From: Hyphomicrobiales bacterium | GTDB lineage: Bacteria; Pseudomonadota; Alphaproteobacteria; Rhizobiales; RI-29 | Assembly: GCA_016125495.1 (NCBI GenBank) | Contig: WGLQ01000004.1 | Location: 186,001-250,000 of the forward strand | Direction of reading: 5' to 3' | DNA length: 64,000 bases | In this document: positions 46,779 through 54,006 of the stretch, in pieces | Numbering within the stretch: position 1 is the first letter of the stretch | Layout: each line of letters starts with the position of its first letter | The notes under the pieces: model-generated | Seen by the model: the letters and a program-made list of their open reading frames with translations, nothing else | What the model was told of the DNA's origin: nothing | Databases searched by the model: none | Position numbers and translations under genes: made by a program

Positions 46779-47885
46779 ATGGCGACACGCAAGCTCCTCC
46801 TTCTTCCCGGCGACGGCATCGGCACCGAGGTCATGGCGGAGGCCGAACGTATTCTCGCCTGGGTCAACGCCAACGCGGGCGGCGGCTTCGAGACGGAGAC
46901 CGACCTCGTCGGTGGCTCGGCTTACGATGCGCATGGTGTTGCCATCACCGATGCGGCCATGGCCCGCGCGATGGCCGCCGATGCGGTGCTGTTCGGCGCG
47001 GTCGGCGGGCCGAAGTGGGACGGCGTGCCCTACGAGGCGCGACCCGAAGCCGGGCTCCTGCGCCTGCGCAAGGACATGCAGCTCTTTGCCAACTTGCGCC
47101 CGGCGATCTGCTATCCCGCCCTCGCCGACGGCTCCTCGCTGAAGCGCGAAGTCGTCGAGGGCCTCGACATCATGATCGTGCGCGAGCTGACCGGGGGTGT
47201 CTACTTCGGCGAACCCAAGGAGATCACCGACCTCGGCAACGGCCAGAAACGCGCCGTCGACACCCAGGTCTACGAGACCTACGAGATCGAACGCATCGCC
47301 CGCGTCGCCTTCGACCTTGCGAGAAAGCGCGGCAAGCTCGTGCACTCGGCTGAAAAGCGCAACGTCATGAAGTCCGGCGTGCTCTGGAACGAGGTCGTCA
47401 CGAATGTCCACCGTAAGGAGGCGAGCGACATCCGCCTCGAGCACATCCTCGCAGACAACTGCGCCATGCAACTCGTGCGCCGGCCCAAGCAGTTCGACGT
47501 GATCGTCACCGACAACCTCTTCGGCGACATCCTCTCGGACGCGGCCGCCATGCTGACGGGTTCGCTCGGCATGCTGCCGTCGGCTTCGCTCGGGGCGGCG
47601 GATGCGGGCGGCCGCCGCAAGTCGCTCTATGAACCCGTGCACGGTTCGGCTCCCGACATCGCGGGCAAGGGCGTCGCCAACCCGATCGCCACCATCGCCA
47701 GTCTTGCCATGGCGCTGCGTTATTCCTTCGACATGGGCGAGACGGCGGACCTCATCGAGGGCGCGATCGCCCGCGTGCTGGCGAGCGGCATCCGCACCGG
47801 CGATATCGCGAGCGCCGGCTGCACCACCGTTGGCACCCGCGCCATGGGCGACGCGATCCTCGCCGAGATGGGAAGGGCAGCTTAG
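46779..47885 (+). CDS. leuB: 3-isopropylmalate dehydrogenase
   Basis: 368 residues; it oxidises and decarboxylates 3-isopropylmalate in leucine synthesis. Signatures: [64 protein letters not shown] and [20 protein letters not shown], followed by [20 protein letters not shown]. All match LeuB rather than isocitrate dehydrogenase. The thioredoxin-TIR gene starts 33 bp after its stop, so some read-through into that locus is possible. Confidence 0.97.
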
Positions 47886-47917: not shown

Positions 47918-48775
47918 ATGACGGAGGTTCGCGACGTCACGAAAGAGGAGTTCGCCGCCGAGGTCGTCGAGGCCTCTCGGCGCCAGCCCGTTCTGGTCCA
48001 CTTCTGGGCGCCCTGGTGTGGTCCGTGCAAGGTGCTCGAACCGATGCTCGCCGAGGCCGTTGCCGCGACCTCGGGTGCCGTCCGTCTGGTGCGCGTCGAC
48101 GTCGACAAGGCGCCGGGTATCGCCGAGACGCTCGAAATCCAGTCGATCCCCGCCGTCTTCGCCTTCCGCGATGGTGGGCCGGTGGACGGATTCCTCGGCG
48201 CTCTCCCCCGGGCCGATGTGCAGCGCTTCGTGGAGAAGATTTCGCGGGGCGCCGGCAAGATGGACAAAGAGGCCGCCGGGCAACCTCGCGAGACACCGTC
48301 CGCCAGATCCCGGCCGGCCCGTATTTTCATCTCCTACCGGCGCAGCGACTCGACCGCCTTCACCCATCGCCTCCATGAACGCCTCACCGCTCATTTCGGT
48401 CCCGGCTCGACCTTCATCGACATCGATGACATTCCCTTGGGCAGCGACTTCCGGCGCCACGTTCGCTCGGAACTCGCCGGCTGCGGCCTCGTCCTCGTCG
48501 TCATCGCGCGCAATTGGATGGAGCTTGGAGCCGGCGGTGCGCCGCGCCTGCACGAGGCGGGCGACGTCGTGCGCCTCGAGATCGAGACGGCCCTGGAGGC
48601 GGGCGTTCCGGTCGTGCCCGTCCTCGTCGGCTCGGCCGTGATGCCCGCTCCCGCCGCCCTGCCCGAAAGCCTCGCCGAACTTTCCTTCCGCAACGCCGCT
48701 CGTGTCGACGACGGCATCGATTTTACCGCCCACGTCGGCCGCCTCATCGCCGGCATCGAGCGTCTCATGGCCTGA
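47918..48775 (+). CDS. Thioredoxin-TIR domain fusion protein
   Basis: A 285-residue two-domain protein. Residues 1-108 are a thioredoxin with the CGPC active site in FWAPWCGPCKVLEPML (Cys34, Cys37) and the cis-Pro in QSIPAVF (P78). A polar linker (110-133) leads to a TIR_2-type domain: RIFISYRRSDSTAFTHRLHE (135-154), TFIDIDDIPLGSDFRRHV, LVLVVIARNWM, and VVRLEIETALEAGVPVVPVL. E221 (or E223) lies where NAD-cleaving TIRs carry their catalytic Glu. No signal peptide. A redox-controlled TIR NADase or signalling protein is inference. Two small genes follow on the same strand. Confidence 0.85.
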   Translation: MTEVRDVTKEEFAAEVVEASRRQPVLVHFWAPWCGPCKVLEPMLAEAVAATSGAVRLVRVDVDKAPGIAETLEIQSIPAVFAFRDGGPVDGFLGALPRADVQRFVEKISRGAGKMDKEAAGQPRETPSARSRPARIFISYRRSDSTAFTHRLHERLTAHFGPGSTFIDIDDIPLGSDFRRHVRSELAGCGLVLVVIARNWMELGAGGAPRLHEAGDVVRLEIETALEAGVPVVPVLVGSAVMPAPAALPESLAELSFRNAARVDDGIDFTAHVGRLIAGIERLMA

Positions 48776-48823: not shown

Positions 48824-49180
48824 GTGCCTCCGGTCTACCACCGCCTCCACAACACGCGCACCCAGTCCGATGCCACCGCCCGCGAGCAGCAGCGCTCGGG
48901 CCGCATCTGCGGGCGCGAGGCGCTCTGGAGCCACCTCAAATCGGTGAAGGCCTATCCGGGCCTGCTGCCGCGCGGGCGCGCCGGCATCGAGTTCGAAACG
49001 CCCCTCCCCCCGACCGACCGCGCCTCCTACGTCTCTTGGCTCGAAGGCGCCCCCGGCGTTGTCGCGAGTGCCGATGGCGACTATGTTTGCATCGAGGTGA
49101 CGATCCGCCGGATCGTGCCCGACGCCGGAGAGCAAAGGCGCGCATCGCGCCGCGCCGGCCCGCCGAAGGAAGCATCGTGA
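48824..49180 (+). CDS. Unknown small protein of the TIR locus (gene A)
   Basis: 118 residues from a GTG at 48824 (CGAGGA about 10 bases upstream). Soluble, basic, with one Cys. It runs VYHRLHNTRTQSDATAREQQ, then GREALWSHLKSVKAYPGLLP, then FETPLPPTDRASYVSWLEGA and GDYVCIEVTIRRIVP before a basic tail. The codon usage is fully typical, so it is a real gene. No motif recognised; the strand-turn pattern near 75-105 could be a small beta-alpha fold. Its stop overlaps the start of gene B by four bases (GTGA), indicating translational coupling. Confidence 0.6.
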   Translation: MPPVYHRLHNTRTQSDATAREQQRSGRICGREALWSHLKSVKAYPGLLPRGRAGIEFETPLPPTDRASYVSWLEGAPGVVASADGDYVCIEVTIRRIVPDAGEQRRASRRAGPPKEAS

Positions 49181-49497
49181 CCGCTGACCCGGACCTCGCC
49201 CAACGATCGATCGCGGACACCGCCGACCTCGCGCGGCGCGATTTCGTGCCGCTGATGACGCTGCCGGTGGCGATTTCGGCCGTGGCCCGCCGGCTCGGCG
49301 CGAGGATCGAGCACGGCCACGACGATCTCGACGATTTCGAAGCCGTGCTGATGGTCAAGCCGCGCGGCCGGCGTCTGCTTTTCATTCGCTATCGGGGTGC
49401 GCCGAAGCGGGCGACCGACGTCCTCGTGCCGCGCCGCAACGCGACCACGGCAACGAAGCGCTTCGTCATGGCATCCCTCGATCTCGTGGCGGCCTGA
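49177..49497 (+). CDS. Unknown small protein of the TIR locus (gene B)
   Basis: 106 residues from a GTG at 49177 that overlaps the stop of gene A; GAAGGAAG lies upstream. It is soluble and starts acidic (TADPDLAQRSIADTADLARR). The core PLMTLPVAISAVARRLGARI, then DFEAVLMVKPRGRRLLFIRY and the end TATKRFVMASLDLVAA alternate predicted helix and strand. No family recognised. Tight coupling to gene A suggests that the two products act together, for example as a complex or as effector and partner. The link to the thioredoxin-TIR gene is based only on proximity (48 bp to gene A) and strand. Confidence 0.6.
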   Translation: MTADPDLAQRSIADTADLARRDFVPLMTLPVAISAVARRLGARIEHGHDDLDDFEAVLMVKPRGRRLLFIRYRGAPKRATDVLVPRRNATTATKRFVMASLDLVAA

Positions 49498-49603: not shown

Positions 49604-50512
49604 ATGATGCCGCGCGACATCCAGCGCATCTCGCTGGCCAGCATCGCGGTGGCCGTTGCCGTTCTGGCGCTCAAGCTCGTTGCCTGGCGCATCACCGGCT
49701 CGGTCGCGCTCTTTTCGGACGCCCTCGAAAGCGTCGTCAACGTGGCCGCCGCCGTCGTCACGTTCCTGGCCGTGCGCCTCGCCGACAAGCCGGCCGATCG
49801 CAACCATCCCTACGGCCACCACAAGGCGGAATACCTCTCGGCCGTGTTCGAGGGCGTGCTGATCGTGCTGGCGGCGCTCGCGGTCCTCGATGCCGCCTGG
49901 CGAGCAGCGCTCGCCCCGCGCGAAATCTCCGAGCCGTTCGTCGGCATGCTGGTGAACGGGCTGGCCGGCGTGCTCAACGCGCTCTGGGGGGTGTTCCTGT
50001 TGCGGCGGGGCCGCGCCCATGCCTCGCCGGCACTGATGGCCGAAGGCCGCCATCTCCTGGCCGATGTAGGCTCATCCGCCGCGGTCCTCGCCGGCCTGGC
50101 GATCGCCATCGCGACCGGCTATCCGATCCTCGATGCGGTGCTCGCGGCGATTGTCGGCATCTACATCCTCTGGTGCGGCTGGAACCTGGTCCGCGACAGC
50201 CTCGGCGGTTTGATGGACGAGGCGATAGCGCCCGACCTCGTCGCGCGCATTCGCACGATCATAGAGGCGAACGCCGGGGGTGCCATCGAAGTGCACGACC
50301 TACGCACGCGCCGGGCCGGCCGTGCCACCTTCGTGGAATTCCATCTGGTGGTGAGCGGGCGCATGCCGGTGCGCGAGGCCCATGCGATTTGCGATCGCAT
50401 CGAGGCGGCCCTTCGCACCGAGATCGTCGGCGTCGTTACCACCATACATGTCGAGCCGAGCGAAAAAGCCAAGGGGCCGGCCGAGGCCGGCGGGCCGCTG
50501 GTCCTGCATTGA
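49604..50512 (+). CDS. Cation diffusion facilitator (FieF-like metal exporter)
   Basis: 302 residues from the ATG at 49604 (GGAG upstream). Six membrane segments. Metal-site motifs: SVALFSDALESVVNVAAAVV in TM2 (Ser-Asp-Ala-x-Glu-Ser), NHPYGHHKAEYLSAVFEGVL, and RHLLADVGSSAAVLAGLAIA in TM5 with H-x3-D. The cytosolic C-terminal domain (ARIRTIIEANAGGAIEVHDL, then RRAGRATFVEFHLVVSG) is the usual dimerisation/metal-sensing module. It exports Zn, Fe or similar divalent ions by proton antiport. Confidence 0.92.
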   Translation: MMPRDIQRISLASIAVAVAVLALKLVAWRITGSVALFSDALESVVNVAAAVVTFLAVRLADKPADRNHPYGHHKAEYLSAVFEGVLIVLAALAVLDAAWRAALAPREISEPFVGMLVNGLAGVLNALWGVFLLRRGRAHASPALMAEGRHLLADVGSSAAVLAGLAIAIATGYPILDAVLAAIVGIYILWCGWNLVRDSLGGLMDEAIAPDLVARIRTIIEANAGGAIEVHDLRTRRAGRATFVEFHLVVSGRMPVREAHAICDRIEAALRTEIVGVVTTIHVEPSEKAKGPAEAGGPLVLH

Positions 50513-52005: not shown

Positions 52006-54006
52006 ATGGCTAAGAAGATCTCCATGGAACGGGTCTCCGGTGGTCGCGTCGAGCACGGCCGTGAGGCATTGAGGGCCGAAAGCGTCCCGGTCGGTGAGGC
52101 ATATGGCGAGCTGCACGGCGATGCGGGGCGTGGGGCGGCGACACGCCGAACGCAGCCCGGCTGGCGGGGCATCGACACCGTCGTGACGCTGGCGATGCTG
52201 GTGGTGGCGCTGGCGGCCGGCCTGGGTCTGGTCGCCGAAATGGCGATGACGCCACCCGTTGCAGGTTCGATCGCGGCCGCGTTGTTCGTCGCCATGCTCG
52301 CCGTGCATATGTTGACCCGGCGGATCGGCGGGCTCGGCCATAGCGTCGATCGCCTCGAAACGCGTGTCGATTTGATCGAGCAGAACGCCACCCGGTCCAC
52401 CGCGAACGATGCCGCCGGAGAGCTGGCGGAGGTCGAGCTTCGCGCCATCGATGCCCTCGACGACGACTTCCTCGAGGTCGATGAAGAGCTGGACTACGAC
52501 GCGTTCCAGCCCTCGGACCAGGGGCTACGGCAGCCCGGCCCCGTGCTGCACGATGCGCAGGACGTGCGTACCGCCCAGGGGGATGCCGCAGCGCCGCAAG
52601 CGCGGCGTGCCGACGCCGGCGCGGCAAGTGCCGCCTCCGCGCGTCTGGACCTGGACGACGATTTCGACAGTCCACTCGCCTCGGCTCGGCGTGAGGCGAT
52701 GCGCGACATCGCCCACGTTGGCCGCTCGCCGTCTCCGGGCACCGAGACACATGCCGCCGCCACGCGTCCCGACCCGGTCCTGTCGCGCTCGCCCGCTGAT
52801 CTCGGAGCCCATCCGGGAGAGAGCACGATGTCCCACCGGCTGGAGCCGCGCCTCGACGTCCGCTCCTCCCAGCCCCATCCGCAAGCCGGCGCACTGCATG
52901 CGCCCGAGACGCGCCGTGCCACGCCGCGCGATGCTCAGGCGCAGCTCGACGAGGAGGGCTTGCCGCCGATCGCGCTGCCACGCGCCCCGGTCCCTGTGCC
53001 GACCCCGGCAGCCTCACGTGGCATGCCGGTGCCGCCGCCCCCGGCTGCAGGCCGGCCGGCTCTGGAAGCGAACCCGGAGGGGCCCGGTCGCGCCGCGCTG
53101 CCGCCGCGCCCCCCTGTGCCCTCCATGCCGAAGGCCCCCCCGCCACCGCCGCGCCCGGTCGGCGCGGGCCCGGTCGCCGGCCAGCCCGAGGCACCCCGTC
53201 CGGGACATGGTCCGACCGAGCCGCCGCTGGCGCGCTCCCTCGACGATGCTGGCCGTACCGAAGTGGTCATCCAAGCGATCCGCAAGGGCGATCTCGACCT
53301 CTACCTGCAGCCGATCGTCGGCCTGCCGGATCGCAAGCCCGCCCACTTCCAGGTGATCGTGCGCGTGCGCACACCGTCCGGAGCAACGCTGACGGGCGAG
53401 GAATTCGAGCCGATCGCCCGCGCCCGCGGCCTGATGCCCGCCATCGATCAGATCATGTTGGCGCGCACGGTGCAGATCCTTCGCAAGCTGACGCGTGGCG
53501 GCAAGGGCCATCGCTTCTTCTGCACCCTCGCGGATGCATCGGTTGCGGCCCCGGGCTTCCTGCAGGAGTTCGCCTCCTATTTGCGTAAGAACCCGGACGT
53601 CGGGCCGCGTCTCGCCATCGAGATCGCCGACGATGCGCTCGTCGTCGGCAACCCTGAGGTCCGTGGCGGTCTCGCCGAACTGCGCGAACTCGGAGTGGCG
53701 CTCGCGATCACGGCGACGACGGACGAGATCGCGCATGCTGGCGCGCTGGCCGAACGGGTTGCGGCACGCTTTGTCCGCGTCGCCCCGCACGTGCTCTCCG
53801 CGCGCTCGCGCGGTCCGGCCGAAACCGCTCGCCTCGTGGCCGAGAACCGCATGCTGGGCATCGACGTCCTGGTCGATGGCATCGGCGACGAGAACGCGCT
53901 CGCAGATGTCGTCGCGAGCGGGATTTCCCTGGTGCAGGGTGATCTCTTCTCGAGCCCGAAGCCGCTTTCCGGAGATGCCGTCGCCGGCGCCCACCGGGCG
54001 GCCTGA
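52006..54006 (+). CDS. TipF-like protein with degenerate EAL domain
   Basis: 666 residues. Two membrane helices near 57-75 and 82-103 (VVTLAMLVVALAAGLGLVAE, VAGSIAAALFVAMLAVHMLT). A coiled-coil-like segment RRIGGLGHSVDRLETRVDLI follows, then about 280 disordered residues rich in Pro, Ala, Arg and Asp. The C-terminal 240 residues are an EAL fold: DLDLYLQPIVGLPDRKPAHF, QIMLARTVQIL, ISLVQGDLFSSPKPL. The EAL itself reads QVI and the DDFGTG-type metal site is missing, so phosphodiesterase activity is unlikely. The architecture matches TipF, a c-di-GMP-responsive polar/flagellar assembly factor of Caulobacter. Confidence 0.75.
   Translation: MAKKISMERVSGGRVEHGREALRAESVPVGEAYGELHGDAGRGAATRRTQPGWRGIDTVVTLAMLVVALAAGLGLVAEMAMTPPVAGSIAAALFVAMLAVHMLTRRIGGLGHSVDRLETRVDLIEQNATRSTANDAAGELAEVELRAIDALDDDFLEVDEELDYDAFQPSDQGLRQPGPVLHDAQDVRTAQGDAAAPQARRADAGAASAASARLDLDDDFDSPLASARREAMRDIAHVGRSPSPGTETHAAATRPDPVLSRSPADLGAHPGESTMSHRLEPRLDVRSSQPHPQAGALHAPETRRATPRDAQAQLDEEGLPPIALPRAPVPVPTPAASRGMPVPPPPAAGRPALEANPEGPGRAALPPRPPVPSMPKAPPPPPRPVGAGPVAGQPEAPRPGHGPTEPPLARSLDDAGRTEVVIQAIRKGDLDLYLQPIVGLPDRKPAHFQVIVRVRTPSGATLTGEEFEPIARARGLMPAIDQIMLARTVQILRKLTRGGKGHRFFCTLADASVAAPGFLQEFASYLRKNPDVGPRLAIEIADDALVVGNPEVRGGLAELRELGVALAITATTDEIAHAGALAERVAARFVRVAPHVLSARSRGPAETARLVAENRMLGIDVLVDGIGDENALADVVASGISLVQGDLFSSPKPLSGDAVAGAHRAA

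What the first reader, a model, noticed from the sequence alone, without database searches (positions are those of the whole stretch)
47918..48775. Thioredoxin fused to a TIR domain
One 285-residue frame joins an intact thioredoxin (CGPC at 34-37, cis-Pro 78) to a TIR_2-type domain with a conserved acidic pair (E221/E223) where NADase TIRs hold their catalytic Glu. Bacterial TIR domains cleave NAD+ or make signalling nucleotides in antiphage and other systems, and thioredoxins sense or transmit thiol redox state. A fused pair suggests a TIR output gated by redox or by a disulphide exchange partner. I know of no described system with this layout.
Basis: partly seen in the sequence, partly recalled or inferred. 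Interest (0 to 1): 0.78.

Follow-up and report, generated by a model that had tools for sequence, protein, structure and literature searches.

The report
CnoX-type thioredoxin joined to TIR domain
One bacterial gene joins the redox half of a protein-quality-control factor (CnoX) to a TIR domain whose relatives destroy NAD+, while the same genome's normal CnoX has lost its own redox site, which suggests a cell-stress or infection sensor built from a housekeeping part.

Summary
In detail: window 47918-48775 (+) is one 285-residue frame with thioredoxin (Pfam 5.3e-24) and TIR_2 (1.2e-10). The thioredoxin half is not an ordinary TrxA but resembles the N-terminal domain of the chaperedoxin CnoX: 42-61% identity to sampled CnoX with CGPC, 34% to the genome's own TrxA. 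The genome's canonical CnoX gene persists, but its thioredoxin-fold domain has no cysteine. So the only CnoX-type CGPC found sits on a TIR domain. The TIR half resembles the SARM1 NADase (VIA-align Z 18.2; 17 of 17 solved sequence matches); E221 aligns with SARM1's Glu and is invariant in 31 of 31 rows, E223 is not. No other fusion appeared in the listed matches for 396 genomes of the order or 397 of the phylum (overlapping samples, capped lists), nor in plasmids or phages. Two genomes of other families carry a parallel design: ClpA N-domain plus C-terminal TIR. Best reading: a housekeeping proteostasis domain borrowed as recognition module of a NAD+-cleaving TIR effector. Function is inferred; redox gating is untested; the fusion is known from one genome.

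The parts
47918..48775 (+). Thioredoxin-TIR fusion gene, 285 aa
47908..47912 (+). GGAGG, Shine-Dalgarno-like, 5 nt before the ATG
   Evidence: read directly
47927..48235 (+). Thioredoxin domain (residues 4-106) of CnoX type
   Evidence: Pfam PF00085 5.3e-24; the 29 best-matching loci outside the genome all have a CnoX-like TPR half
47999..48001 (+). His28 in place of the Asp six residues before the first active-site Cys (buried Asp of thioredoxins, recalled)
   Evidence: Asp in 53 of 53 readable CGPC-bearing CnoX rows; position checked
48017..48028 (+). CGPC active site, residues 34-37
48149..48151 (+). Pro78, the cis-proline position of thioredoxins
48248..48307 (+). Linker, residues 111-130, pLDDT under 50 (likely flexible; no relatives covered it in the alignment)
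48314..48772 (+). TIR domain (residues 133-285), SARM1-like fold
   Evidence: Pfam PF13676 1.2e-10; pLDDT mostly 87-97 by blocks; VIA-align Z 18.2 to SARM1 TIR
48578..48580 (+). E221, putative catalytic Glu, aligned with the Glu of SARM1 'WVHKEI'
   Evidence: 31 of 31 rows; phmmer alignment
46779..47885 (+). leuB, 3-isopropylmalate dehydrogenase, 32 nt upstream on the same strand
   Evidence: PF00180 3.4e-135; the name leuB is mine
48824..49180 (+). 118-aa unknown ORF downstream
   Evidence: no Pfam match; one weak match (E 3.4e-4) in 198 other genomes of the order
49177..49497 (+). 106-aa unknown ORF
   Evidence: no Pfam match; spread not searched

Best explanation
The protein is a TIR effector whose recognition module was taken from the chaperedoxin CnoX. 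Shown by sequence and models: a CnoX-type thioredoxin with an intact CGPC site, a linker of about 20 residues that is probably flexible, and a SARM1-like TIR domain with an intact catalytic-Glu position. Inferred: the thioredoxin half docks on something that signals trouble, most likely oxidised or misfolded client proteins held through C34, or an invader's protein that targets this domain. Docking clusters the TIR domains, paired TIRs form active sites around E221, and NAD+ is cleaved, so that the cell stops growing or a nucleotide signal is made. In the same genome the canonical CnoX keeps its TPR holdase half but has a cysteine-free thioredoxin fold, so the redox centre of CnoX appears to have moved to the TIR protein; whether it came from this lineage's own CnoX is not shown.
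For: Trx half nearest to CnoX: the 29 best loci outside the genome all carry a TPR half; 42-61% identity to CnoX rows with CGPC against 34% to own TrxA. Own CnoX sits among tRNA-editing, LON_substr_bdg and Trm112p neighbours, has TPR_20 at 5.5e-32, no Cys in its first 189 residues and still models as a Trx fold, best PDB matches E. coli YbbN and thioredoxins. TIR: SARM1 is the only solved family matched by sequence, 17 of 17, and the best fold match; E221, D168, W200 and D216 invariant in 31 of 31. Same TIR family with a ClpA-type N-domain in front in two genomes of two other families: two different proteostasis factors have given their N-terminal domain to a C-terminal TIR. No SIR2_2 protein in the genome, which speaks against the SIR2 form of a ThsA partner.
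Against: Known from one genome; no homologous fusion to show that selection keeps it. No biochemical data. The place of the Trx half inside CnoX is unresolved in the tree (bootstrap 5), and that tree holds only one non-CnoX thioredoxin. CnoX is thought to meet GroEL and unfolded clients mainly through other parts (TPR half; recalled), so the Trx half alone may have lost those contacts. Other relatives fuse the TIR to transporter, TPR or FGE-sulfatase domains, so the proteostasis theme is two cases among ten frames that I picked out of 34. CnoX without CXXC also occurs in five sampled genomes that have no such fusion in the listed matches, so loss in CnoX does not need a hand-over.
Confidence: 0.42

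Rival explanations
1. Redox gate in cis: the CGPC pair makes or breaks a disulphide with the TIR domain (its only Cys is C189) or with a partner, and this switches NAD+ cleavage on or off.
For: Intact CGPC and cis-Pro position; one Cys in the TIR, C189; low-confidence, probably flexible linker.
Against: C189 is Cys in 17 of 31 rows, 16 of them relatives without a thioredoxin, so it is not special to the fusion. No fixed orientation between domains was modelled (pTM 0.57). His28 replaces the Asp found in 53 of 53 readable CGPC-bearing CnoX rows, which by recalled E. coli thioredoxin work should slow the exchange.
Confidence: 0.2
2. Integrated decoy: the Trx half is bait for phage or toxin proteins that bind host thioredoxin-fold proteins (T7 DNA polymerase is the recalled example), and binding triggers the TIR.
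For: Housekeeping domain in front of a TIR of this family in three genomes of three families; a solved complex of an Rhs toxin with TrxA appears among the fold matches (8s2n).
Against: The domain is CnoX-type, not TrxA-type; the flanking frames that I scanned are leuC, epimerase, leuB, cation efflux, SDR, EAL, DUF2254 and unknowns, with no defence family (the flanks were scanned with Pfam only).
Confidence: 0.15
3. Passenger fusion: a deletion or insertion joined a CnoX N-terminus to a TIR gene and the Trx half has no regulatory role.
For: Seen in one genome only; long branch of the Trx half (1.63 against a median of 0.22); this TIR family is fused to many unrelated partners.
Against: CGPC, the cis-Pro position and the surrounding CnoX signature are kept despite the divergence; the Shine-Dalgarno-like site serves the full fusion; own CnoX lacks the redox site.
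Confidence: 0.2
4. Assembly or sequencing artefact that joined two genes.
For: A single assembly; the TIR part has its own Met (M115) that could be a start.
Against: Inside a 441 kb contig, in frame, similar composition in both halves.
Confidence: 0.03

Closest known systems
CnoX (YbbN) chaperedoxin, Caulobacter type (PMC6282202, passages seen)
   Same: N-terminal thioredoxin domain with WCGPC, up to 61% identical to CnoX of the order
   Different: No TPR half; His instead of the Asp before the active site; C-terminal TIR instead
SARM1 TIR NADase
   Same: Best fold and only solved sequence match; Glu221 aligns with the SARM1 Glu
   Different: No ARM or SAM domains; regulation would come from a thioredoxin
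Thoeris (ThsB TIR, ThcB4)
   Same: TIR domain with weak matches to ThsB (25.5 bits) and ThcB4 (42.5 bits)
   Different: Far below the ThcB4 cut-off of 220 bits; no SIR2_2 protein in the genome
ClpA N-domain plus TIR proteins (unnamed; G316 and G011)
   Same: Same TIR family, TIR at the C-terminus, housekeeping proteostasis domain in front
   Different: Recognition domain is ClpA-type Clp_N, not thioredoxin

Membership tests
CnoX/YbbN chaperedoxin | N-terminal thioredoxin-fold domain of CnoX type | tested here: met
CnoX/YbbN chaperedoxin | C-terminal TPR holdase half (TPR_19/TPR_20) | tested here: not met
   no TPR in the fusion; own P0003 has it
Thioredoxin | WCGPC site and cis-Pro position | tested here: met
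Thioredoxin | NCBIfam equivalog TIGR01068 above cut-off | tested here: not met
   88.8 bits against 96.8; own TrxA 127.3, a CnoX 99.2, so the model does not part TrxA from CnoX
Thioredoxin | Buried Asp (Asp26 of E. coli, recalled) | tested here: not met
   His28; Asp in 53 of 53 readable CGPC-bearing CnoX
Thioredoxin | Reduction by thioredoxin reductase | not testable with these tools
   needs enzyme assay
TIR domain NADases | TIR fold | tested here: met
TIR domain NADases | Catalytic Glu position | tested here: met
   E221, 31 of 31 rows, aligned with SARM1 Glu
TIR domain NADases | NAD+ cleavage | not testable with these tools
   needs enzyme assay
Thoeris | ThcB4 model above curated cut-off | tested here: not met
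   42.5 bits against 220; ThsB model of PADLOC 25.5 bits, no cut-off given
Thoeris | ThsA-type effector, SIR2 form | tested here: not met
   no PF13289 match in the genome; other effector forms not tested

The most novel reading that the evidence does not exclude
TIR effectors in this bacterial order capture the client-binding domain of housekeeping protein-quality-control factors (CnoX thioredoxin here, the ClpA N-domain in two other families) as built-in sensors or baits. In this genome the redox centre of CnoX has been handed over to the TIR protein, so that thiol stress or an attack on proteostasis is coupled directly to NAD+ destruction.
Probability: 0.28. Interest if true: 0.82.

Novelty: new variant of a known kind. 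Interest (0 to 1): 0.62.

Why it matters
How bacterial TIR proteins sense trouble is known for few systems. A TIR that wears a domain of a known chaperone gives a direct, testable guess at the trigger: the clients or attackers of CnoX. It also bears on the printed statement that all alphaproteobacterial CnoX keep a strict WCGPC motif (PMC6282202, passages read): this genome's CnoX has no cysteine there at all, and an intact copy of the domain sits on a TIR.

Tried and rejected
Tried without result: viral contigs with the TIR half (66 pattern matches, none a relative). The genome-contig scan kept 80 of 153 relatives; their matched ranges reach residue 146 at most, so none covers the TIR half. 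Thioredoxin-TIR wording in papers: which asked for all terms at once, gave none and one unrelated paper. Integrated decoy with TIR and anti-phage gave one plant review (listing); ClpA with TIR domain gave one jumbo-phage paper (listing); Clp_N with TIR domain gave two papers, of which one was looked at by passages.

Rejected: TrxA origin of the thioredoxin (34% against up to 61%); Thoeris membership; the acidic pair as a unit, since E223 is not conserved. The 417-aa reverse frame over the gene was set aside as a product of high GC3, without a test of its own.

Mistakes and limits of my own: one downstream frame was given out of register (window 49621-50512) and so showed no family; with 49604-50509 shows cation efflux (5.6e-40). 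The first thioredoxin tree was cut at wrong columns and is replaced. Alignment A1 mis-aligned the two domains and was dropped. For the model of the fusion only TIR relatives were supplied (A3), so the thioredoxin half rests on one sequence (block pLDDT 50-76). A3 holds the query and 30 of the 34 relative frames; left out were two frames fetched twice, L185 (near copy of L183) and L191 (weakest but one by identity order of that list). The ten frames were picked by me, some because their TIR is not at the N-terminus. The frequency of cysteine-free CnoX cannot be given: of the 59 CnoX, 29 were the best thioredoxin matches, 24 were picked one per family from the strong matches, and 6 came from genomes picked for a weak match.

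Full report
The frame is real. Window 47918-48775 (+) encodes 285 residues from an ATG preceded by GGAGG, 32 nt after the stop of leuB. Pfam finds thioredoxin at residues 4-106 (5.3e-24) and TIR_2 at 136-260 (1.2e-10), both over the curated cut-offs. The window lies in a 441 kb contig of a 4.05 Mb genome in 36 contigs, 99.35% complete, the only genome held of its family. Both halves share the composition of neighbouring genes (GC3 0.84 and 0.82; leuB 0.87, cation-efflux frame 0.86). Neighbours scanned with Pfam are aconitase-family (leuC), epimerase, isopropylmalate dehydrogenase, cation efflux, a short-chain dehydrogenase match below its cut-off, EAL, DUF2254 and unknown frames.

The thioredoxin half is of CnoX type. 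A search of 397 genomes of the order (own included) gave matches in all 397, and the 29 best loci outside the genome all encode a thioredoxin followed by a TPR half like that of the own CnoX. The name CnoX for these rests on that architecture and on the own copy (TPR_20; best PDB match YbbN). Over 59 CnoX rows the identity is 35.5-61%, or 42-61% for rows with CGPC; the genome's own TrxA, a TIGR01068 member (127.3 bits), is at 34%. In a tree of the domain with 59 CnoX rows and one TrxA the fusion falls among the CnoX rows (a fork at 88/91 holds it with all but two of them), but its exact place is not resolved (bootstrap 5, 105 columns, long branch).

The genome's own CnoX is changed. It lies at C19:34019-34978, next to a LON substrate-binding protein, a Trm112p protein and an aminoacyl-tRNA editing protein. 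Its TPR half is normal (TPR_20 5.5e-32), but the thioredoxin part scores only 0.085 against Pfam and has no cysteine; the single Cys of the protein is residue 190. The model still shows a thioredoxin fold there (mean pLDDT 87.6; E. coli YbbN is first among PDB matches by E-value, though with low whole-chain TM, and thioredoxins reach TMt 0.77). The only matches to the fusion in the genome at E up to 0.001 are itself and TrxA. So the one CnoX-type CGPC found in this genome is on the TIR protein. The 2018 mBio paper on CnoX states that WCGPC is strictly conserved in all alphaproteobacterial CnoX (PMC6282202, passages). In my sample 54 of 59 rows keep CGPC and 5 of 59 lack it; the own CnoX is a further case. 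The sample is not random. The genomes of those five (G173, G341, G271, G379, G065) show no match spanning both domains in the rows listed; G379 does hold two separate TIR relatives, without a WC.PC motif. So loss of CXXC in CnoX occurs without the fusion.

Within the fused thioredoxin, Asp is replaced by His28 six residues before the first active-site Cys; 53 of 53 readable CGPC-bearing CnoX rows keep Asp, one row being masked there. In E. coli thioredoxin this Asp assists catalysis (recalled), so the fused domain may exchange disulphides slowly and hold a partner longer.

The TIR half is SARM1-like. Of 17 solved sequences matched at E up to 0.1, 17 are SARM1. The modelled TIR aligns with the SARM1 TIR at Z 18.2, rmsd 2.0, 135 residues. 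E221 aligns with the Glu of the SARM1 'WVHKEI' stretch; an E642A SARM1 entry is among the matches, and that this is the catalytic Glu is recalled. E221, D168, W200, D216 and YRR140-142 are invariant in 31 of 31 rows (query and 30 of the 34 relative frames); E223 is Glu in 12 of 31. The only TIR Cys, C189, is Cys in 17 of 31 rows.

How rare is it. In the rows listed for 397 genomes of the order (weaker rows were cut from the list) no other match covers both domains; the furthest reach from the thioredoxin side is 4-174 in G060, which is a CnoX with a TPR half, and two rows (G260, G306) match the TIR side alone. The same holds for 398 genomes of the phylum at E up to 1e-33; these samples overlap. 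No plasmid record of 613 with a match and no phage record of 106 has a place covering 80% of the query. With the TIR alone, 19 of 396 other genomes of the order and 3 of 288 others of the class have relatives at E up to 1e-10, and 0 of the 34 relative frames examined hold a WC.PC motif (32 distinct places, two fetched twice; some rows got no locus and were not examined). A scattered spread like this is usual for accessory genes.

A parallel. Ten of the 34 frames were scanned with Pfam: two have Clp_N in front and TIR at the C-terminus (G316 of family f2, G011 of f12), one TPR, three FGE-sulfatase, one ABC permease, one OpuAC, two nothing else. The front part of G316's protein matches the NCBIfam ClpA models best (1.2e-29, residues 6-169), and is 51-63% identical, in the rows listed, to the start of frames of about 800 residues in other genomes of the order. 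Three of those frames, cut by the locus end, were scanned: two pass the ClpA equivalog cut-off and one lies 0.8 bits under it. Among 279 genomes searched only G011 matched over both domains (40% identity, 2-324 of 326; G316 itself was not in that sample). Thus two proteostasis factors have each lent an N-terminal domain to a C-terminal TIR of this family.

Mechanism. Shown: domain identities, intact CGPC, intact Glu position, cysteine-free own CnoX. Inferred: a flexible linker (low pLDDT), recognition by the thioredoxin half, clustering of TIRs, NAD+ cleavage. The absence of a SIR2_2 protein argues against the SIR2 form of Thoeris, but other partners were not searched. The two small downstream frames have no Pfam match; the 118-aa one has a single weak match in 198 other genomes of the order, so a lineage-specific partner is possible.

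Literature. Searches for thioredoxin with TIR domain gave no paper on such a fusion; the library holds open-licence papers only. A survey of conflict systems (PMC7159879, passages) mentions ClpN repeats fused to vWA proteins and TIR effectors; the word thioredoxin does not occur in its main text.

Noticed in passing
L176:907-1986 (G316:C5) and L197:982-1968 (G011:C18): ClpA-type Clp_N domain followed by a C-terminal TIR of the same family, in two genomes of two families.
   Followed up: partly
L165:1527-3677 (G306:C50): TIR domain in one 717-residue frame with an ABC transporter permease (BPD_transp_1).
   Followed up: no
L168:755-2506 (G621:C99): TIR domain in one frame with a glycine-betaine binding domain (OpuAC).
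   Followed up: no
L117:1495-2457 (G000:C19): Own CnoX with a cysteine-free thioredoxin fold and a normal TPR half.
   Followed up: yes
L130, L131, L132, L133, L136: Further CnoX proteins of the order without a CXXC pair, in three families, contrary to the printed rule for alphaproteobacteria.
   Followed up: partly
genomes G050, G087, G121, G150, G175, G198 (family f51): No match to the own CnoX protein in the six f51 genomes tested, two of them under 80% complete; 17 of the 28 genomes tested had none.
   Followed up: no
window 48824-49497: Two small frames of unknown function directly downstream; the first has one weak match in 198 other genomes of the order.
   Followed up: partly
G000 C27:170654, C7:277176, C19:19874, C14:50143: Four further TIR_2 matches in the same genome.
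   Followed up: no
window 52006-54006: 666-aa frame with a C-terminal EAL domain (3.2e-28).
   Followed up: no
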